Assembly: GCA_019828545.1 (NCBI GenBank)
Contig: JACVRA010000349.1
Location: 1 to 64,000, forward strand
Source: Paracamarosporium sp. OC-R06-R3
Lineage: Eukaryota; Ascomycota; Dothideomycetes; Pleosporales; Didymosphaeriaceae
Length of the DNA stretch: 64,000 bases
Direction: 5' to 3'
Below, piece by piece: positions 31,728 through 61,201 of the stretch; position 1 is the first letter of the stretch; every line of letters starts with the position of its first letter. The notes under the pieces are model-generated. The model was not told where the DNA came from. It worked only from the letters and a program-made list of their open reading frames with translations, and did no database searches. The position numbers and the translations under genes were made by a program.

Positions 31728-34011
31728 TTGTTATGAATTTTAGAGATTTATTAAATGCTCTTGCTTTGTGGTGTCGCTAATAATTTCTCACGGAAACGTC
31801 AACGCCACTATCGCGTGCCATGGTGGTGCGGTGGTGGCGACTACGGGGCAGTCGCGCCTTCCTGGCATGGCGCATACCGCTGTAACGTGGCCGGCGGCAA
31901 GGACACAAGATAGAGTGCTGTTGTCGCATAAATAGCGTGCTGTTCTCTGTTGTCCGAGTTGCGAAGCGCTAATATCCCCAATCAGGCAGAGCCTGTTAAC
32001 CGTTTTCTGTATCATATTTCCCGTTACGGTCCCTCGACAGATGGCAAGGTGGGAGGGAAACTCTGTTCTCAGGGTCCTATGGTCGTATGTGACATCTGTA
32101 GCTTAAATCTCAAAATATAAAGGCTGTATTACATCTAGGAGGACGCTTTCAATAGGAGGGCTTGCGGCGCGATAGGGTAGATCTAGCTTCCGCTTCGCTA
32201 CAAGACTGACGTTGTAATAGAGCGTGACACAGATTTGTCGCACCTAAAGCCTCGGCATCCTATCAAATGTTCTCGGCATCGATGTTTGAATTGAACCACA
32301 TGATATCCGATCAAATGCGGACTGTTGTTGGGTTGAGATCAGCCCTTGGCCATCTTTGGTTATTCATAGGCCATCTATAAGACATCAGTACTTCTGGTGG
32401 GTATTACGCTGCCTGACCAAGAATCTCTCTCTTTGGGTTTTTCGTAAAACCTCACCTCGAAATCCTTCGACGGGGTTTGAGCACGTTCGTGGCTCTTTTC
32501 GTGGAGCGTACCCGGAACGGCCGGGAAAGTCTTGGCTTTGGACAGTGGCAGCGCGGCGTGCAGCGGCGTTTTTGTAACAGCATCCTTGGTTTCCCGAGCG
32601 AAAAAAAGAACAGTTAGCTGTCGACACAGTGCGACATGAAGTTACTACTATGATTTCTCTGCGGGCTTCTTCTGTGTAATGTGAACTTCGGTTGTCGCGT
32701 TCTGTTTGCATTTGCTAGCTATGGTTGAGGTGGCGCTGGATGCCTGACATTGCGCTTCATGAACAGACAGCCCACTATCGTCTTAAAGGTTAGCCTAGGC
32801 GATGTCAAGAATGCGGACTCATAGCTTGTGTTGTGAGATGTCAGTGTCTCGGGCCCACCGGTGAGGATATCTACAGATACTTTGCGAAGAAAATTCTGTA
32901 CAAACCGAAACGTAATGAGCAAGTTAGACGGATAAGAAAAGTCCATCTAGTCACAGAAGATTCGACCCCTTGGGGACGTGTGCGTTGAAATGCTACTGTC
33001 CGTGCTCTTTGATTGCTAAAGTAGTGGCGATTCACGTCGCGAATGTCCTCGCCATGAAGGGCTTTGACTTGCAGCACATTGGTCTCAGCAGGGCTCTCCC
33101 TTCACAGTATCAAAGTATAATGATTGAGCGTCTGCCGGCTGGCGAAAGTGACGAGGAAAGTCGAATCTATTGGCGATGCGATTCGCCTCGGTACAGCGGT
33201 CGATCTTGCACAGGGAAAGGCACAGGTTTTGGAATGGATAGAGATCATCGAATGACCAAGAAGTCAAAATGGTGAGCGACAAGGCTAAGGGCAAACGATG
33301 CATTTCATCCTAGGGTAAACGCTAACTTTTCAATAGAACGGGAGTGGATCTTGAAAAGGAAATACGAAAGGCTAGGCGCTCGGACAACTCGAGATAGTGG
33401 GGGCATCGGTTATAATTGGGCAAAAGGATCGCCAGTGAGGGGGCCAGTGCGACCGCACCTTTTGGCCCTCCCTCGACAAAGTATTGGGACATATTTGTGA
33501 TACAATGCGGGCATGCCAACTGACCCTGAACCTGAAAGCGATCTTAACACAGCCACATGTGTAGAGAGAGGAAGCTTTATCCGAAACGTTCAATCAGACA
33601 TCCACGGACACGAACAGGGTTTTCGTAGTGCACTGCATTTCCGATGCATATGAGCGTTATACAATTACCCCATCAGGTATGGAACCTTGGCGACGTCGTT
33701 CGACAATTCCGTGCTGCAAGTTCCTAGTTTTTGAGTTCGCCTCTTACCTCCGGCCCCAACGGGCTGGCCCGCCGTGTTGCACGGCATTCGCAGCCAATCA
33801 CGACGGAAATTTTGATTAACCCACCTAAACGACTTTGACACCAAGTGGTCTCGTGTTACGAGGGTTTCCCTAACCGTTCCCATTCTCTCATACACCGAAA
33901 GTGTAGTGCATGGGGCCAAGCGCCTAATACAAAGGTGCAATCACCCTTTGTACCCTACTTCGCTCCTACTACACAGGTGGTCTGTCCAAGTGCTCGCAAA
34001 TATCCTTCAGC
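31728..34011. other. Long intergenic region, no supported gene
   Basis: About 2.3 kb with only incoherent short frames on both strands. I found no terminal inverted repeats, tRNA-like fold or transposase motif. It may hold decayed sequence that cannot be read by eye. Confidence 0.45.
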
Positions 34012-34847
34012 ATGGCAACCTGCTACGGAATAGATGGCAACCCGGACCCTGACTTCTATCCCTGCAACCAGACCGCCGTCCTCGACCACCAGCATACATC
34101 ATGTTGTAAGAAGAACGAGAATTGCTATACGAACGGGTTGTGTCGGCACACATCCGAAGGGTCGAAGACCAATTATTACTGGCTCGAGGGCTGCACCGAT
34201 CCCACCTTCAGCCATCCAGCGTGCTCAATCCGGGATTCATGTCGCAATGGTACGATAACAAACATCGGCCTCAGTAATTTTTCGCATGGCTAATCGTCAG
34301 GGAAGCGGACAATCTGTATTGGAAGTGTCCTGACACGGATGCATGGTGTTGCAACAATGGGGGGGCATCACCTCATAGCCAAAGGACAGGACATCTCAAT
34401 ACAACGTGCTGCAACATCACCGAGTTCATGTTCAACGCTCCAGGACCGGAGAAATACGCCAATGCTCTACCGATGACACTCCCACTTAGTATGTTTCTAT
34501 CAAGCTCGGAGACAACATCATACCAAACATCGTCAACGCAGCCAACGACCTCAATATCTGCTACAACGACTCCAATAAACAGCATATCCTCTCCTGACAA
34601 CACACCTGGAGCCTCCGGAGGCTCTTCCAACAGTGTTGGCATTGGTGTTGGGGTAGGTGTCGGACTTGGAGGGGGTGCTATAGCCATAGCTGCGGTACTA
34701 TACGTTCTCGTGCAGAGGCGACGCAATGCATCGAGAGGGCGTGCCTTTTCCGAGTTGCCAGCAGGAAACCCAAGGTTTGAATTACAAGGAAACGAGGCTG
34801 CCGCTGAAGCCATGACAGAAAAGACGATGTACGAGATGAGAGCTTGA
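34012..34847 (+). CDS. Cysteine-rich single-pass membrane protein, fungal orphan family
   Basis: Exons 34012-34249 and 34306-34847 with a 56-bp intron give 259 residues. The outer part holds a repeated cysteine pattern (MATCYGIDG, YPCNQ, SCCKKNENC, NGLCRH, GCTDPTF, PACSIRDSCRN, then KCPDTDAWCCNN and TTCCNIT). A Ser/Thr-rich linker follows (many TTS motifs), then a Gly-Val helix SVGIGVGVGVGLGGGAIAIA as the membrane segment (about 198-222), a QRRR stop-transfer and a short cytoplasmic tail. This build, a Cys-rich ectodomain, mucin-like stalk and Gly/Val TM, is common in ascomycete cell-wall sensor-like proteins of unknown role. No signal peptide precedes MATCY, so either a short first exon is missing or the protein is inserted by its TM. 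The intron acceptor (GGAAG) is the in-phase choice; an AG five bases earlier would break the frame. Confidence 0.75.
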
Positions 34848-35053: not shown

Positions 35054-35971
35054 TCACAATACTGATTCGTCTTTCAACAGCCTTATTTGTGTATTAGGAA
35101 TCATACGCTCCCTACTCCATCCATCGATCTGAGACCAGTTCATGCACTTGCGCGGCGCGTCAGACCGAGCTGATGGCTTCGTCGCATCCGCTGCAGACCA
35201 GAAGAACGAATAGAGGCCAAGGTCAGCGGTACATATAGCTGAGACCCGAAGAGCCTCGATACAGTGCCCAATGTGCACTTGCATGAACTGTTCGTCGTCT
35301 CTCGTCGCATTCGGATAGTACACTTCGCGGTAGAGCCACAGGCGCATCCGTCGCTAATGATTGTCAGTAGCTCGTTAAAGGCTGCTAAAAGGCATGCAAC
35401 GCACCAAGCAGTGTAGCTCATGATACACACCTAGGCTGGCCATGTATCCTCCCGAGGCTACACGCACAGAATCTTGCAGTGGTGCGCCTGAACGGACTAG
35501 CTCTTCGGAGGTGGCATTGAATATGAGTGCTATCAAGCATTAGTACCAGATCGGATAGGGAAAATCCGGGCCACATACGTTCTATAAGCTCCTCCCATGC
35601 ACGGTTGTTCTCATCTGTGGGATACCCAGTGTATGCGTTGTGCTTCAGTGTCCCGTTACTTCGATCAGTCTTTACGACATAGTCGACTGGATTCGCCATA
35701 GGAGCTGTTTTATCTGATTAACGAAACACTTTGCAAAAACAGCTCCTCACTTACTGTAGATGTTATCATCATGACGGTGGCTGAGATAGTTCAGGAAAAA
35801 CGCTACAAGACACAAGGTGAGAGCGACATGCAAAAGAAGAACATAGACAAGTCTCGTTTTGCGATAACGGGGAGAGTTCAGAAAGTCGTAGCTACGAACG
35901 TTGGATGATGCGGAGAAGTCAAAATCTTCCTCATCCTGCTGCGAGCTCAAAAGACTCTTGCGTTCTTCCAT
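35054..35971 (-). CDS. UstYa/DUF3328 family oxidase-like protein
   Basis: Four exons (35971-35755, 35704-35579, 35529-35405, 35353-35054), introns 49-51 bp, make 255 residues. An acidic N-terminal tail leads to one membrane helix (41-62). The two family motifs are present: YHELHC at 150-155, interrupted only just after by intron 3, and HIGHC at 183-187 in the segment HxxHCIEALR. YTGYPTDENNRAWEEL before them is also typical. Family knowledge: UstYa homologues (ustiloxin, cyclochlorotine, asperipin and phomopsin pathways) are membrane-bound copper-dependent oxidases that cyclise or hydroxylate peptides made ribosomally or by NRPS. Context: a small secreted-peptide gene and a P450 lie within 3 kb, which is why I look on the three as one candidate cluster. 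The ATG at 35971 is the only in-frame start. Confidence 0.88.
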
Positions 35972-36372
35972 GGCTACTTCAGACAATTTTTAATATTCTC
36001 TCAGAAAAAAAAAAGGTAAGAAAGAAAGACAGGTAGCACAAAGCAACACTTCTGAGGAATTGTAGAATGTTGCAGCCTACGAAGTGCGCGCTTTTGCCTC
36101 TTTACGTCTCAAGGCAGACTCACCGCGCGTGCAACACGGGCCCCCACTGCACGTGAAGAACACCACACTCTGTGACCAAAGCTTAATCCCCGAACGCCTT
36201 TCCGGGCGCCATCGGATAGAGCAATCATGTCGCATCGATCAGATGTCAGGTGGGAAGCGATATGCTGTGCCACCGGCATTCGACTAAGCTGCGGTGTGGT
36301 CGCGAGATAGGCGACCGGCTGAAAATCCTACAGCCAGTCAACTGAAAACATTAAAATCCGCAAATCCTCCAA

Positions 36373-36640
36373 TCATGTGCCGTAAACAGCCCCATCGGTT
36401 GAAACATGGGGCCAAAAGTATCTACAAGCGCCCGTGATACCAATATATCTCGGGCATACAATACGTGACCAAGGAAATACTTCATGGAGAACCCGCATTA
36501 TCAGCTTGGAGAACGCCTCGGCGGGCTCAGCTGGTTGGGCATCTATACCGGGGAAGTGAGACAGCAACAGGTAATGCTCCAAGGGTGGATGGTAGAGCGT
36601 AGATGCTATCGCAGGTATTTGTAGGCCACTGCCTGCAACG
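36373..36640 (-). pseudogene. Unidentified coding fragment
   Basis: The minus strand holds about 88 coherent codons from a stop near 36650 to TGA at 36373, with STLYHPPLEHYLLLSHFPG, then PAEAFSKLIMRVLHEVFPW, then VCPRYIGITGACRYFWP. Composition looks like real protein, but there is no ATG, no clear splice acceptor and no known family. It may be the last exon of a lost gene. Confidence 0.3.
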
Positions 36641-36741
36641 TTTTCTCTTCATCCGTCAAGATCACAGCTGTGCTTCGCATTTCCACTGATTTCACACACA
36701 AAAGTCTTTTTGCATACCCAAGACCTTCCAGGTCAGTCACG

Positions 36742-37040
36742 ATGCAGTTCCAATCCTTGTTGTCCACCTTCACTGCGTGTGCATTGATGACCTTCGCGGT
36801 TGCTGCACCCATCCCGGATGTTGTAGATGGTGGTAAGTCATCCCTACAGGAACCCAAATGACGATTTTTTGACAAAGAACATAGTCGACAGCGCTGCTGT
36901 ACAGGTCTACCAGAAATCCTGCGGTAAGTTAACGGAGGAAACCTCCGTATGAAGGCTAAACGGTCATTGCAGGACCGGAGCCAGTCGGTACTACTGTTGC
37001 GCGCGATGAGCATGAAGTCTTCTCACCTTGCGGTCATTGA
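36742..37040 (+). CDS. Small secreted peptide, 65 residues, candidate RiPP precursor or effector
   Basis: Three tiny exons (36742-36832, 36885-36923, 36973-37040) with introns of 52 and 49 bp, both with GTAAGT donors and clean AG acceptors, join in phase to 65 codons plus stop. Residues 1-22 form a textbook signal peptide (MQFQSLL, hydrophobic core, cleavage after AVAA). The mature part begins APIPDVVDG and has just two cysteines, in KSCGPEP and SPCGH at the very end. It contains no KR/RR Kex2 repeats, unlike UstA-type precursors. Three exons in under 300 bp with perfect splice sites make chance unlikely. It lies between the UstYa gene (35054-35971) and the P450 (37289-38856). Alternatives: a disulfide-bonded effector unrelated to its neighbours. 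No homologue comes to mind. Confidence 0.7.
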
Positions 37041-37288
37041 GTGGGATAACCGGATGTGGTAGTCAAGATCGAAAGTCGATTTGTTCTATAGCTATCGGGA
37101 GACTCTCCCAATGCACATGAGGTTGAATTCAGCTATTCCCATAACTTCCGGTGCTCTCTTGCATGTTGAGAATTCAACCTTTGGCATACTGTGTAGATTG
37201 TGTTACTTTGAAATCCTACGACACAACGTCTAGGATTTGAACACCAGGTTACATTGCATTGAGCTCATGTTTCGAAGGCCCATCTTTG

Positions 37289-38856
37289 CTAAGGAATCAG
37301 CCCAACCTTTGCCCCATTTCGACCCTGGAACGTCAGTCGCCTCTCTTCCACCCACTCCAACACTGGATCCCTGTTTTCCAGCCCAGAGAACTCTCTGACA
37401 ATCCTCACCACAACGTATTCGCACTCAGAATAGACGAGCTTAAGTGCTGGACAGACCCTTGGGCCTCCGGAAAATGGAATGTACTCCCACGTTGGGCGCA
37501 TAGTTTCCCATCGCTCAGGGCGGAACTCATCAGCATCAACGCCCCAATACAATTTGTCGCGTAATTGAGAGCGGAAATGCGTCTCAATCAGATCACCTTT
37601 CTCCAATAGAAGAGGGCTTTGGCCGTCAATACCTCCACCCGCTGGTAGCACTGTAGTCTCGAGACATTCTCGAAGCGTGCCGGAGTTGAGCGGGGTCAAG
37701 CGGAAAGCTGGAAAAGTATGTTAGCTCCAGTACAATGCTAGCATTATATCTTCTTACTCTCGCGAAGGACCCAATTCAAGTACTTGAACGAAGTGAGTAG
37801 CTCATAAGTCAAAGGCTCAGATGCCTTTGAGACGATTTCGGCACGGAGTTTCGTCCAAGACTCAGGATTTCTAGCAAGGTGGAAAAACGCATTGCTGACC
37901 GCGACAGCCAAATTGTCGTGAGCAGGCATAAAAAGGCTGATGATAAGAAATCGCAGTGTAGGTTTATCCGAAGAAGCCTTCACAAGCTCATCGATAATGC
38001 GAACTTGCTTCTTCGTACTCAACGGCTTGTTATCTAATTGCGCCGTGCGGGCGAAGGCTTCGTCGATGCGAGCATCAATATAATCCCACACCTCCTGGCA
38101 CCCTTTATAGTGCTCTTGTGACCGTTGAGCAGGGTTCGGGATCACTACATCGCGCAACGCAGCTTGAAAAGCATCCATAAAACCCTTGCCCGAGTCTGGC
38201 GATGAGAGTGCCTCCATAGAACGGCCGAAGATGAACTCAGTGGATACGTCAAGAGTCTGTTCCACGTCAGCATTCCACCGTGACATTTGGTTTCCGGGCA
38301 ATCTTACCATCCTCTTGAGTAACGGGAACAGATCTACCGTCGAACCATCACGTGGAAGCAGCTCCATGAACCGATCCACAAACGGTCCCAACCGGTTGAG
38401 GTTCGCGATGTGCGCGACATCGAACGTTGGGCGGATGAGCGCTCGGCTTGTCTTCCACTGAGGTCCATCCGTAACCAGCATACCATTGCCAAAGAAGCTT
38501 TTCCCACCCTCATATCTGATAGGTTGCAGACCGAATTTGTCAAAGTGGGTTGACAGCACCGCTTTGAATACTTCTGGGTCACATGTTCGGATGATTACTC
38601 TGCCACCACGCTTGGTCTTGTAAGTTTTCCCGTGCTCGTTGAAAAGGCGGGTGGCCGTCTCGAGAAGACTGTAGTTCTGTGCAGACTCGCGGTTGATCCT
38701 GTCTAAGTCTATCTTAGGTTGCGGGGGCTCTCTGCAGCCATGTCTCCAGCTGAGCACAAAGCGAGCGAAATACCTGTTCACCTTAGAGGAAAACAAGTAT
38801 AGTGGTATCAGCAGTATCGCGACCAGTATTGAAACCGGGAACGAGGTGGGTGCCAT
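37289..38856 (-). CDS. Cytochrome P450, CYP52-clan-like (alkane/fatty-acid hydroxylase type)
   Basis: Exons 38856-37758 and 37707-37289 (50-bp intron, CTAAC branch) give 505 residues. An N-terminal membrane anchor (residues 8-24) is followed by the proline-poor hinge, a helix-C WKTSRALIRPTF motif, the I helix, the ExxR pair E366-R369 (RETFRL, spanning the intron), the FRPERW segment and the haem loop FSGGPRVC with Cys452. The FNEHGKTYKT and GPQWKTSRALIRPTF stretches fit the CYP52/CYP539 group, which oxidises alkanes and fatty acids at the ER. Odd point: the I-helix motif normally AGRDTTA reads PAHDNL (311-316), so the conserved Thr is missing. The residue after the haem Cys motif is also A where G is common. 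Upstream, at 38905-38943, a 13-bp unit is repeated three times. Substrate unknown; a role in modifying the nearby peptide is inference. Confidence 0.9.
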
Positions 38857-38943: not shown

Positions 38944-39456
38944 ATCTAGGAACGGAAAAATACGCAGGGCAAACCGACGCAGGCGATGCCAAGGCTAGGC
39001 CTCAAAGATAAAGAAATAAGCAACAGGCATTCGAATCCATTTTACTGCGGTCAGCTGAGAACCATTCGCTTAGGACGACCCCGCTGGCGAAGCACGTTTG
39101 TGACACCTTCCACATGGGCGGCGCATCCCGAAGTACCAAGTAGTTGCTAGTAAATTTGTCCTCGAACTTGAGTCAGCATGTATGCTGAACCGTAGATCTT
39201 CTGCAGTATGATTCGACGATTCGCAACGTGTTACCGATGGAATCCGTGGTGCTGTAAATTACGCAGCATAGTTCCAACCATGCTGTGATTAGCCGGTTAC
39301 CGCAACGCCCGATACCTCAACCCATCTATTCTTTGGATTCCGTCAATAACAGAGATGCGCTTATGTGGCGTATTTCAGTCCCTACACAAGGGCACTTCCT
39401 TCCCGCAACACACTAATCGCATCCTGCTTCATTCAACGCCCGCGTAGGAACTCACG
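38944..39456. other. Divergent promoter region
   Basis: Between the P450 (minus) and the second Pth11-like gene (plus). No frame or motif beyond the 13-bp repeats is supported. Confidence 0.5.
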
Positions 39457-40705
39457 ATGCTGGTAGAAGGTGAGTCGAATCTCCAGCTTGGATCGTATAC
39501 TGCAGCCGTCAGCGGGCTTGCTGTTGTACTGGCTCTCGATGTAATCATTGTGTGCGCGCGGTTTTACGTCAGAAAGTCGCTGGGCTACAAGCTGAATCTC
39601 AATGACTGGCTTACGGTACCGGCCCTGGTAAGGCGACACTGTATTCGCAAATGTCTCAAAACTTATCTCTACGTAGCTTTTAAATATTGGCATGGCGATC
39701 GCGATGTTTTACGCCGTTGGCAAAGACTACATGTTCAGTCGCACAGTAACGCAGCTCCCAGGCCCCCAACTAGGTGGGAAGATACGGGAAGCTTACTCCA
39801 CAATCAAGCAGGTACGTCAATCACCGATGATATCGCAGCCATGCTGATCTTTCAGATTGAATTCGCAGTCTTTCTCATGTCTCTGACTGCTTTGGCCTGT
39901 GTTAAAATCAGCTTCTTGATATTCTATAAGCTTATCTTCGTGTACGACAAATGGCATTTTTGGGACCCACGCAACATCTTGTTCAACCTCATGGTCGGGA
40001 TCATCATCCTCTGGGACGTTGGGTTTAGCTTGACAACCATCTTACTCTGCATCGGCTCTGGAAAAGTCAGTACATATTGGCTTACAACGACGTCGCAAGA
40101 ATTGACAAGCAAATGCCTCAATGTATTTGTTTTTATGTATGCTATGTCGATTAGCGATTTCGTCACGGACGTTATTATTATCTTGATACCTCTACCCTTT
40201 CTTTACAGACTTCGCCTTCCACTAGGACGGAAGCTGGGAGTTTTTTGCATCTTCCTACTCGGGTCCTTGTAAGTCAGAAACATCTGAATGAAACATAAGA
40301 CGATTGCTTACATCACCAGGGCTTGCGTCGCTTCCTTAATCCGATTACTCTGGATGGTCGACCAGATAGCCATAGGCGCCACTCCATCCAAGCATGGAGA
40401 CCCTTTGAGTAGGCCTGCTCTGACCCTTCGCATACTCTTACTAACGATTTCCAGCACTGCTCTCAAATGAATTGTTCTGGTATGTCATCGAATCCGAGCT
40501 CGCCCTCTTAGCCGTATCGCTGCCCGCCCTCTCCGGGCTCCGCCGAACCCGCCACGTTGAAGCAATGATCCGAAGCGTTCAAAGTAAATGGAGCCTACGA
40601 TCAGGCACATCTATTTGTTATAAAAGTGACAAAAGCGAGGGGAACTATTCGCATGGGGACCAGGGCGTCAAAAACAAGGGAGGTGCGACTCAAGTCGGCG
40701 TGTAG
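39457..40705 (+). CDS. Pth11-like receptor, rhodopsin-domain integral membrane protein
   Basis: Five exons (39457-39627, 39677-39811, 39856-40268, 40320-40408, 40455-40705), introns 44-51 bp, give 352 residues. Introns 1 and 2 together are a multiple of three long, so an unspliced frame also stays open through them, but only splicing restores NIGMAIAMFYAVGKD. Segments: VSGLAVVLALDVIIVCARFYVR, DDW-like NDWLTVPALL, FAVFLMSLTALACVKISFLIFY, LMVGIIILWDVGFSLTTILL, ISDFVTDVIIILIPLPFLYRL, LGVFCIFLLGSLACVASLIRL and ESELALLAVSLPALSGL, about seven in all. The tail is short and charged. Same family and size as the protein at 22856-24131 but clearly a different subfamily by sequence. Role presumed in surface or chemical sensing. 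Confidence 0.88.
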
Positions 40706-58488: not shown

Positions 58489-61201
58489 TTACCAGGTCTT
58501 TGGTCCAAACGTCTCACCTTCAGCCACAGTCTTACGGATTGCGGTATTTAGATAGTCCTGCAGTATATATGAGCATCGTATATTTACCCGACGGCTGCAT
58601 ACTTACCGTCGTCTCGAACGGCTTTTCGTTGCCCCACCAAGGAATCGCGTACTCCTTGAAAGTAATAGCGAAAAATATCACGATCGTCGAAAAAACCAAC
58701 CCTGCATCGAGCCCGGCTGCAGTGATATAATTGTACCTGTGCCACCACCCGTGCCACTTACGCATGATCCAGTAATTAAATACCAGGCCCCAGAGTGCCC
58801 AGGAGGAGAAGCTAAGAGGAGTTGCAGGTGGCAACCATCCCATAGCGCCAAGCATGACTGGCGCGTTTAAGTATCGAAGTGGAGACTTGGGAGCTACGCG
58901 CATGAGAAAGTAGCAGATGATGGGTAGGGCAGCTCCAATGAGCCAGTAGTAGTGGATTGAAGAGTATACTGAACCCGGTCCGAACATCCGATGAGGGCCG
59001 ATGACTCCCCAGACAATGCTGTTGGAGAAGAAGGCGCGGCCGTTTGGACAGGTGAAGTTGCTTTTCTGTAGGCGTGTGCAGACTTCTGGTATACTTTAGG
59101 TGGGCACACAAGTCAGCAATGTCTCTCACTCCAACTTCAATGCAAAGAGAAGCGCGTGACGTACTTTCCTAATGTCCAGTTCATGACAGCGATCTGTACG
59201 AAGGTTGCCCAAATGGTTGCCACAAGTTGGGCTGTGAATGCAGTCTTTGGTGGGACCTTCATATAATGCGCAAGTTTCAAATCGGCGGAGAACAACTGTG
59301 CCTGACCCAACGTGTTCGTGCTGAAGACCTTGAAGATCATGACACCAATGGGTTTCCCAGGGATCATGTACCCCGCAAGGAATGGCGATATGACGTTGAG
59401 AGACAGCATGATGTTGGTGATGCCAAAGATCATGCATGTTGGGATGACGAAGATCAAGCCGATAACCAGTGACACGAAGTACGCCCACCACGGCAATTGT
59501 GAATCATAAGCCAAAATAGTGGCCAGGCCAAAGCCAGCGAAGATGACGAATAGGATGCCGTACCACCAATCAGGGCAGGGGGCATATTTCTGCATAAGCT
59601 TCATGTGGATGTCCGGTTCTTGGTGTCGTGCGGCTTTGAAGCGATACCAGATCTCCTGACGATGGAATACAAGCACATGTACAACGGATGCAGTGAGCGC
59701 TGCGAAACTGAGCCCGTAATTCAGTGCCAATGTGGGTGCTAGGAACAAGGGCGAGTATGCTTTGTATTTCTCTAGGTCGAAAGTGAATTTCGGTCCGATA
59801 ATGTTGGTGACGTTGTATGCAGCCTGCGTGTTGTCGAATGTGGTCGATGTATTGATTGGCAGGTAATCACCATACCAGGAATTAGTGAAGGAAATACCAA
59901 GGGTGGTGATGATGATAAAGACAACCAATCCGATAAGAGTGTTGATATGCGCATGAGCGGGCGCAAGCAGAGGGTCCTGCAGGTAACTTGATACGTACGT
60001 CCAATCAAATGTGATCGGTATGAGTGACAGACCCGTGTAGCCGCCAAAGAGCTGGTTCACCACCACGTTGTCAGGCTTGATCCTAGTCTCGAATTAGAAC
60101 GGCGACGACGGGAAAGCGAGAAAAGTGCATTACCATGTAGCAAATGCGAAGACCTGGAGACCTTGCCAGATGACTCCTATCGTTGATGAGATACGATATT
60201 CGTTACAATTACCTCACTGTCACTCACCGGGGAACCAATAATAAACGAACATGCCACCCATAACAATGAGGAAGTATCGCATCCGAGAAATGCGCCATCC
60301 ATTCGCATCCTCGCTGGTGGGTTTTCGATCATGGAAGGCGTGGAGCAACGCAGCGTTCGAAAACTGTGTCGGCCAAATAATGGCTGCGGGCCAGACCTAC
60401 AAGATGGATGAGTCAAGTACACAAAAAAGATCGTATTGTTGGGCTTACCAGAAAGCGGCGAAAAAGTCCTGCAAGCGAGATTCCGATTACTTGACTGCTG
60501 AGCGTGAAGAGCAGTTGAAAGCCCCATGACATTGGGATATTGTATAGCGGCTTTGCTAAAAGCGCCAGGAGTGCATCTGTGGAATACGCGTAGTTGATGG
60601 AGATTCCCGCCATAATCTAGGAAGTGTTAGTATGTTAGGCAACGTGAGTGTATTAGGCACTGACCGTGATCACTGCATGTTCTTTGATGTTAAATGGACC
60701 TGTGTTAAGTGTCCACTTGATGCCAAAGGTGGTAAATTGCCTCGTTGGCATTACCCGAGCCCAGAGAACACCGAAAGGATATACTACTCTGTCGGAACGT
60801 AAGTGACGTGAATCTCCCACTATATGCTCTAACACCTACAGTAATACCACAATACTGGGGAAATTAATGTATGGGCTTCGCATCGACAAGAACATATTTA
60901 TGCCAGATGCAACAGTGACAAAGATCATGCCCAGGGCCCACGCTCGTACCGTGTTTGCAGGCTCTCCGCCATCTGTGTTTTTCACTGCAGCCCTTACCTC
61001 CTCGTAAGGCGAGTCTTCGATGAAGTCTGCTTCCGCCTTTTTGATCGCTTCAGGGTCGCCATCATGAGTCGCCGCATGCAACTCGTCAATCTTGTCTTGT
61101 CTCAAATTCGGATCCCATTGATGAGTTTTCTCCGTGATGTTGGCATGACCGGTCTCAACAGAGGTGCTGTACGTCGCCTTTTCGTGTACTACCTCGCTCA
61201 T
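58489..61201 (-). CDS. Oligopeptide transporter, OPT family
   Basis: Eight exons (61201-60840, 60788-60665, 60616-60449, 60396-60228, 60176-60134, 60082-59165, 59093-58607, 58530-58489), introns 48-76 bp, give 770 residues with every join in phase. The acidic N-tail holds SPYEEVRAAV, a hallmark of fungal OPTs, followed by NTVRAWALGMIFV. Later blocks are NTGPFNIKEHAVITIMA, WPTQFSNAALL, YYWFPGVIWQGLQVFAF, FDWTYVSSYL and GYMIPGKPIGVMIFKVF; the end is TVAEGETFGPKTW, the expected C-terminus. I count about 14 hydrophobic segments. The protein imports tetra- and pentapeptides or glutathione with protons at the plasma membrane. The terminal 13-residue exon is easy to miss. Placed beside secreted amidase and glycan hydrolases, it suits nutrient capture (inference). 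Confidence 0.93.

What the first reader, a model, noticed from the sequence alone, without database searches (positions are those of the whole stretch)
35054..38856. UstYa + tiny secreted peptide + P450: candidate undescribed peptide-modifying cluster
Seen: a UstYa/DUF3328 protein with both HxxHC-type motifs, a three-exon gene for a 65-residue pre-peptide with two cysteines, and a P450, all within 3.8 kb. Known: UstYa proteins modify peptides in fungal RiPP pathways. Inference: the peptide is the substrate. Against: no Kex2-separated core repeats, no peptidase or transporter gene next to it, and UstYa homologues also occur outside RiPP clusters. If true it would be a single-core RiPP type.
Basis: partly seen in the sequence, partly recalled or inferred. 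Interest (0 to 1): 0.75.

Follow-up and report, generated by a model that had tools for sequence, protein, structure and literature searches.

The report
UstYa, P450 and conserved two-cysteine peptide
A fungus carries three neighbouring genes, two for oxidising enzymes and one for a tiny secreted peptide with a strikingly conserved core, which look like a small pathway for making a modified peptide of a kind that lacks the repeated cores of the known ones.

Summary
In detail: the three genes lie exactly at 35054-38856. The peptide gene, the doubtful part, is real. An annotated 62-aa protein of Pleomassaria siparia matches it over its full length (E 3.5e-12), with an identical decapeptide KSCGPEPVGT across the second splice junction, the same 19-residue spacing of two cysteines and the same CGH end. 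The genes also appear to be linked elsewhere: P. siparia has peptide and P450, and Ophiobolus disseminans and Clohesyomyces aquaticus each have UstYa and P450, on contigs of identical length. These P450s fall in one supported clade. The peptide has no dibasic (Kex2) site and no repeats, whereas 7 of 18 other UstYa places fetched from this genome hold repeat precursors. So it is not a dikaritin by the usual definition. Most likely it is a dikaritin-like pathway with a single, non-repeated precursor, whose conserved block a copper UstYa oxidises in the secretory lumen; that chemistry is inferred. Rivals: an unmodified secreted peptide, or enzymes acting on another substrate.

The parts
35054..35971 (-). 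UstYa/DUF3328 gene; exons 35971-35755, 35713-35579, 35529-35405, 35353-35054; 258 aa; N-terminal hydrophobic (transmembrane-like) stretch by eye, HELHC (154) and HIGHC (186)
   Evidence: spliced translation (the last junction is placed one base over so that the intron reads GT...AG, protein unchanged); Pfam PF11807 E 1.5e-40
35972..36741 (.). 770-bp head-to-head region between the UstYa and peptide start codons (possible shared promoter)
   Evidence: no word of 10 or more bases shared with the P450 upstream region
36742..37040 (+). three-exon gene for a 65-aa secreted pre-peptide; exons 36742-36832, 36885-36923, 36973-37040; signal peptide about 1-22; conserved KSCGPEPVGT and CGH end
   Evidence: homologue P0001, 52% identity over 100% of the query, E 3.5e-12
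37289..38856 (-). cytochrome P450; exons 38856-37758, 37707-37289; 505 aa; by eye haem motif FSGGPRVCPA, ETFR, I-helix PAHDN (Asn where Thr is usual)
   Evidence: homologues up to 76%; Pfam p450 was run on its P. siparia orthologue P0012, not on this protein

Best explanation
A small, conserved peptide-modifying locus of Pleosporales. The 65-aa precursor enters the secretory pathway by its signal peptide. The UstYa protein, anchored in the membrane with its copper site facing the lumen, oxidises the conserved single core (YxKSCGPEPVGT) by hydroxylation, dehydrogenation or side-chain cross-linking, for example of Tyr39. The two conserved cysteines probably close a disulfide loop of 19 residues. 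The P450 adds a further oxidation, which needs the peptide or a fragment of it to reach the cytosolic face of the membrane, or a later stage. Shown: gene structures, peptide conservation, motifs, shared contigs by length. Inferred: substrate relation, chemistry, processing, product.
For: Peptide homologue with a 10-residue identical run and constant Cys spacing (a run this long arises in 0.9% of shuffles of the mature columns). Of 5 named species with a peptide or UstYa hit, 3 are also among the 120 listed of 145 P450 hits, and in all 3 the two genes are on contigs of identical length: P. siparia 4459191, O. disseminans 1728151, C. aquaticus 378951. C. aquaticus has a second listed P450 (P0028) on another contig; it falls outside the window's clade, while the UstYa-linked one falls inside. 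UstYa with HxxHC(x)nHxxHC, the copper site of CctR (PMC12435403, passages). The best AlphaFold model of the O. disseminans orthologue puts each HxxHC on its own helix. Peptide and UstYa are head to head, 770 bp apart. UstYa relatives in this genome match at 20-41% identity per piece (16 of 18 places gave a match), against 74% (62% of the query covered), 65% (50%) and 46% (58%) in other sources, so this UstYa is an old separate lineage. No PKS or NRPS domain among 27 window frames tested.
Against: No second genome with all three genes was seen. Of 9 other species in the window's P450 clade, 2 gave a UstYa hit, 1 a peptide hit and 6 neither. Annotation of such multi-exon genes is poor (P0002 and P0009 look truncated), but this is still a gap. 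A shared contig is not adjacency. UstYa genes are common here, and at least 4 of 47 other UstYa places have a P450 match within about 5 kb (only 92 of 353 P450 candidates were scored). No dibasic site in either peptide. A P450 faces the cytosol (recalled), whereas the peptide would be lumenal. No shared promoter word. No expression or chemistry data.
Confidence: 0.6

Rival explanations
1. The peptide is an ordinary small secreted cysteine peptide (effector-like or antimicrobial), folded by a disulfide and not modified by the neighbours; the UstYa and P450 belong to something else.
For: Two conserved cysteines at constant spacing, no dibasic site, no repeats. UstYa genes are very common here (75 PF11807 matches at 48 places by my count), so chance neighbours are possible.
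Against: Peptide and P450 share a contig length in P. siparia, UstYa and P450 in two further species. Conservation is focused on a linear block. The single-sequence model has no confident fold past the signal helix (block means of pLDDT 40-56 after residue 20; weak, one sequence).
Confidence: 0.2
2. UstYa and P450 form a pathway on a non-peptide or other substrate (for example a lipid-like metabolite), and the peptide is a bystander or a regulator.
For: The best P450 hit is named n-alkane-inducible and some lower ones alkane-hydroxylase-like, though most are just named cytochrome P450. DUF3328 enzymes also act on non-ribosomal products such as cyclochlorotine (PMC12435403, passages). UstYa+P450 pairs without a detected repeat precursor also occur at C175 and C110 of this genome.
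Against: The peptide is conserved and on a contig of the P450's contig length in P. siparia. No core synthase domain was found in the 27 window frames tested. The C175 and C110 P450s are distant relatives.
Confidence: 0.15
3. The peptide gene is a spurious gene model.
For: Short, three exons, no Pfam match, one homologue only.
Against: Full-length homologue at E 3.5e-12 reaching across both splice junctions, from another species' annotation.
Confidence: 0.03

Closest known systems
Dikaritins (ustiloxin, phomopsin, asperipin-2a, epichloecyclin, victorin)
   Same: Signal-peptide precursor next to a UstYa homologue; a Tyr beside the conserved block; a P450 also occurs in some such clusters (recalled).
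   Different: No repeated cores and no Kex2 dibasic sites; 65-aa precursor with two conserved cysteines; no peptidase, methyltransferase, tyrosinase or transporter domain near it in the frames tested.
Lichen UstY clans R1/R2 (PMC12048977, passages)
   Same: UstY homologues in clusters without repeated core; the authors raise a single core peptide as one possibility.
   Different: There the precursor stayed open; here a specific conserved precursor candidate is named. Sequence relation was not tested.
CctR and other DUF3328 tailoring enzymes
   Same: HxxHC(x)nHxxHC copper motif and membrane anchor.
   Different: CctR hydroxylates cyclochlorotine, a non-ribosomal peptide (that it is non-ribosomal is recalled); no such synthase domain was found here.
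Plant burpitide (BURP-domain) cyclases
   Same: Copper-dependent side-chain cross-linking of ribosomal peptides; the likeness of the histidine plane is drawn in PMC12435403 (passages).
   Different: Another protein family; not compared here.

Membership tests
UstYa/DUF3328 family (PF11807) | Pfam profile above curated cut-off | tested here: met
   139.9 bits, cut-off 25, profile 4-220 of 220
UstYa/DUF3328 family (PF11807) | HxxHC(x)nHxxHC motif on two helices | tested here: met
   HELHC 154, HIGHC 186; in the best model of orthologue P0002 residues 59-63 and 91-95 (second place counted by eye) lie in helices 56-71 and 82-105 (mean pLDDT 78, the other four models 52-64)
UstYa/DUF3328 family (PF11807) | binuclear copper, oxygen-dependent activity | not testable with these tools
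   needs biochemistry
Dikaritin (Kex2-processed repeat protein plus UstYa) | UstYa homologue beside the precursor gene | tested here: met
   neighbouring genes 770 bp apart
Dikaritin (Kex2-processed repeat protein plus UstYa) | N-terminal signal peptide on the precursor | tested here: met
   hydrophobic residues 1-22 with an A-x-A end; a crude home-made score flagged exon 1 with cleavage after 22 in variant models; SignalP was not available
Dikaritin (Kex2-processed repeat protein plus UstYa) | tandem repeated cores | tested here: not met
   none found in the window; the same scan finds them at 7 of 18 other UstYa places of this genome
Dikaritin (Kex2-processed repeat protein plus UstYa) | Kex2 dibasic cleavage sites | tested here: not met
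   no two adjacent K or R residues in either peptide
Dikaritin (Kex2-processed repeat protein plus UstYa) | side-chain cyclised product | not testable with these tools
   needs mass spectrometry or NMR
RiPP in general | ribosomal precursor modified by enzymes of its locus | tested here: inconclusive
   precursor and enzymes are neighbours here and partly linked elsewhere; modification not shown

The most novel reading that the evidence does not exclude
A new class of fungal RiPP found across several families of Pleosporales. A single-copy, Kex2-free, disulfide-looped precursor carries one conserved core (KSCGPEPVGT), which a lumenal binuclear-copper UstYa enzyme modifies, with a dedicated P450. 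It would be made beside ordinary repeat-type dikaritins in the same fungus and missed by searches that rely on repeats.
Probability: 0.42. Interest if true: 0.75.

Novelty: new variant of a known kind. Interest (0 to 1): 0.57.

Why it matters
Published surveys of fungal RiPPs look for tandem repeats and Kex2 sites (PMC7329392, PMC9632046, passages). A UstYa pathway with a non-repeated two-cysteine precursor would be invisible to them. The locus gives an exact precursor, an exact conserved core and relatives in named, sequenced fungi, so the idea of single-core UstYa substrates, raised as a possibility in PMC12048977 (passages), becomes directly testable. A conserved core would also suggest one conserved target or signal, whereas repeat-type cores are reported as highly diverse (PMC7329392). 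The conservation rests on two sequences.

Tried and rejected
Spurious gene model: rejected by the full-length homologue. Paralogues of the peptide in this genome: none beyond the gene itself with the window peptide (the typed query lacked one residue, G30) nor with P0001. Kex2 repeat precursor in the 64 kb: none, stop-to-stop frames only, so a multi-exon one could be missed. Shared promoter words: none of 10 bases or more, and three 9-mers against a mean of 3.8 in random pairs. Solved structures of UstYa relatives by sequence: none at E up to 1. A home-made spliced-gene finder missed the correct model through its own acceptor rule and was dropped. The I-helix scan hit wrong places for 6 of 18 rows by eye; motifs were read from the sequences instead. 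Peptide model: single sequence, mean pLDDT 62, not informative past the signal helix. Scaffold odds rest on assumed genome sizes of 38-50 Mb and on species picked because they appear in both lists, so I give no P value. The P450 tree used 13 of the 120 listed homologues, the window and four relatives of this genome.

Papers: passages seen of PMC12435403, PMC12048977, PMC7329392, PMC10512285, PMC9632046, PMC7099791, PMC11253845; the rest only as search listings. That this locus is not described in print rests on those seven searches of one open-access library only.

Full report
What is there. Judged by the best protein hits it is a member of Pleosporales (inference): the closest P450 is from Byssothecium circinans, 76%. 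The UstYa gene runs on the minus strand from 35971 to 35054 in four exons (258 aa). The peptide gene starts 770 bp away on the plus strand, 36742-37040, in three exons (65 aa). The P450 runs on the minus strand from 38856 to 37289 in two exons (505 aa); peptide and P450 genes are tail to tail, 248 bp apart.

Is the peptide real? This was the weakest point of the finding. A search of 5.77 billion proteins gave exactly one hit at E up to 10, a 62-aa hypothetical protein of Pleomassaria siparia, 52% identical over the whole length, E 3.5e-12. The alignment shows a conserved signal peptide (13 of 22 identical), a variable stretch (4 of 13 ungapped columns), a block around YxKSCGPEPVGT (11 of 12, with ten in a row identical), a variable stretch (3 of 10) and the same last three residues CGH. 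The cysteines are 19 residues apart in both. The conserved block crosses the second intron position, and sequence on both sides of the first aligns. No Pfam family matches the peptide, and this genome has no paralogue found. All statements on conservation rest on two sequences.

Do the genes travel together? I could not fetch fungal scaffolds, but the protein search lists the length of the contig that holds each protein. P. siparia: peptide and P450 (69%) both on a contig of 4459191 bases. Ophiobolus disseminans: UstYa (74% over 62% of the query) and P450 (63%) both on 1728151. Clohesyomyces aquaticus: UstYa (46% over 58%) and P450 (49%) both on 378951. These belong to three families, Pleomassariaceae, Phaeosphaeriaceae and Lindgomycetaceae. 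Five named species gave a peptide or UstYa hit. Three of them are also among the 120 listed of 145 P450 hits, and in all three the contig length is shared; the other two, Setomelanomma holmii and Cladorrhinum sp., have more distant UstYa hits (41% and 31%). In the P450 tree (13 of the 120 listed homologues, the window, four relatives of this genome) the window, these three and six more species form one clade with support 100/98 (midpoint root). The second C. aquaticus P450, on another contig, lies outside it, as do two relatives from this genome (C63, C137). Against this, six of the nine other species in that clade gave neither a UstYa nor a peptide hit, and P. siparia gave no UstYa hit. The two UstYa proteins from these species are short models (160 and 173 aa), so missed gene models are likely, but this was not shown.

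How unusual is it in its own genome? The genome has 75 UstYa exon matches, at 48 places by my count, the window's included. I fetched 18 of the 47 others. A simple scan for repeated words with Kex2-type sites found repeat precursors at 7 of 18, for example repeats of PQWYDLTYID and TEFAPWYRATNILPASD. The same scan finds none in the whole 64-kb window. So this fungus seems to have ordinary dikaritin-type loci, and the locus here is of another make. A tblastn with this UstYa matched 16 of the 18 places, at 20-41% identity per piece, well below the close relatives in other species. At least four other UstYa places have a P450 match within about 5 kb: C175, C110, C200 and C260 (one search scored 92 of 353 candidates). 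So a UstYa beside a P450 is not rare in itself. The C175 and C110 P450s are distant from the window's; those of C200 and C260 were not placed.

Mechanism. Shown from sequence: a signal-peptide precursor; a UstYa protein with an N-terminal hydrophobic stretch (by eye) and both copper motifs, each on its own helix in the best model of the O. disseminans orthologue (mean pLDDT 78; the other four models 52-64; 7 sequences in the alignment); a P450 with haem and ExxR motifs by eye. At the I-helix position where Thr is usual (recalled), the window, Byssothecium and P. siparia have Asn, O. disseminans and Aaosphaeria Ser, Lophiostoma Ala, and the other four clade members Thr (read). From the literature (PMC12435403, passages): CctR, and by extension the family, is a membrane-anchored, binuclear-copper, oxygen-dependent enzyme, proposed to have its catalytic part in the organelle lumen, and family members hydroxylate, halogenate or cyclise. 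Inferred: the precursor meets the UstYa in the lumen, the conserved block is oxidised or cross-linked, and the cysteines form a loop. The spacing Tyr39-x-Lys41 recalls the Tyr to i+2 ether bond of ustiloxin (recalled), a guess only. How the core is released without dibasic sites, and how a cytosol-facing P450 reaches it, is open; the P450 may act late or on a released fragment.

Membership. It is a UstYa locus by the features that could be tested. It is not a dikaritin by the usual definition, since repeats and Kex2 sites were tested and not met. It may work like one. Authors of a lichen survey met UstY clusters without repeats and named a single core peptide as a possibility (PMC12048977, passages). 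The seven searches made here in one open-access library turned up no described example in what I saw of them. Verdict: observation confirmed, interpretation partly supported and strengthened, likely a new variant of a known kind.

Noticed in passing
L016:5087 (+), L018:3263 (-), L019:3106 (-), L021:7552 (+), L025:6567 (+), L026:2569 (-), L029:1161 (-): Kex2-type repeat precursor frames at UstYa places in the same genome, i.e. seven likely dikaritin clusters with different cores.
   Followed up: partly
L012 (C175:44500-54499) and L013 (C110:86000-95999); also C200 and C260 near 241-247 kb: Further UstYa genes with a P450 match within about 5 kb. The P450s of C175 and C110 are distant from the window's; C200 also holds a repeat precursor.
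   Followed up: partly
window 39448-40272 (+): Fungal rhodopsin-domain gene head to head with the P450. A Cudoniella acicularis record joins a rhodopsin domain to a P450 relative (P0038), perhaps a mis-joined neighbour.
   Followed up: no
window 33928-34847 (+): Cysteine-rich protein with a Ser/Thr stretch and a transmembrane-like segment (by eye) next to the UstYa gene; no Pfam match for its two main reading frames.
   Followed up: no
window 59140-60093 (-): OPT oligopeptide transporter about 20 kb from the trio; probably unrelated.
   Followed up: no
window P450 (37289-38856), I-helix PAHDN: Asn replaces the usual I-helix Thr in the window, Byssothecium and Pleomassaria P450s, while four other clade members keep Thr.
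   Followed up: partly
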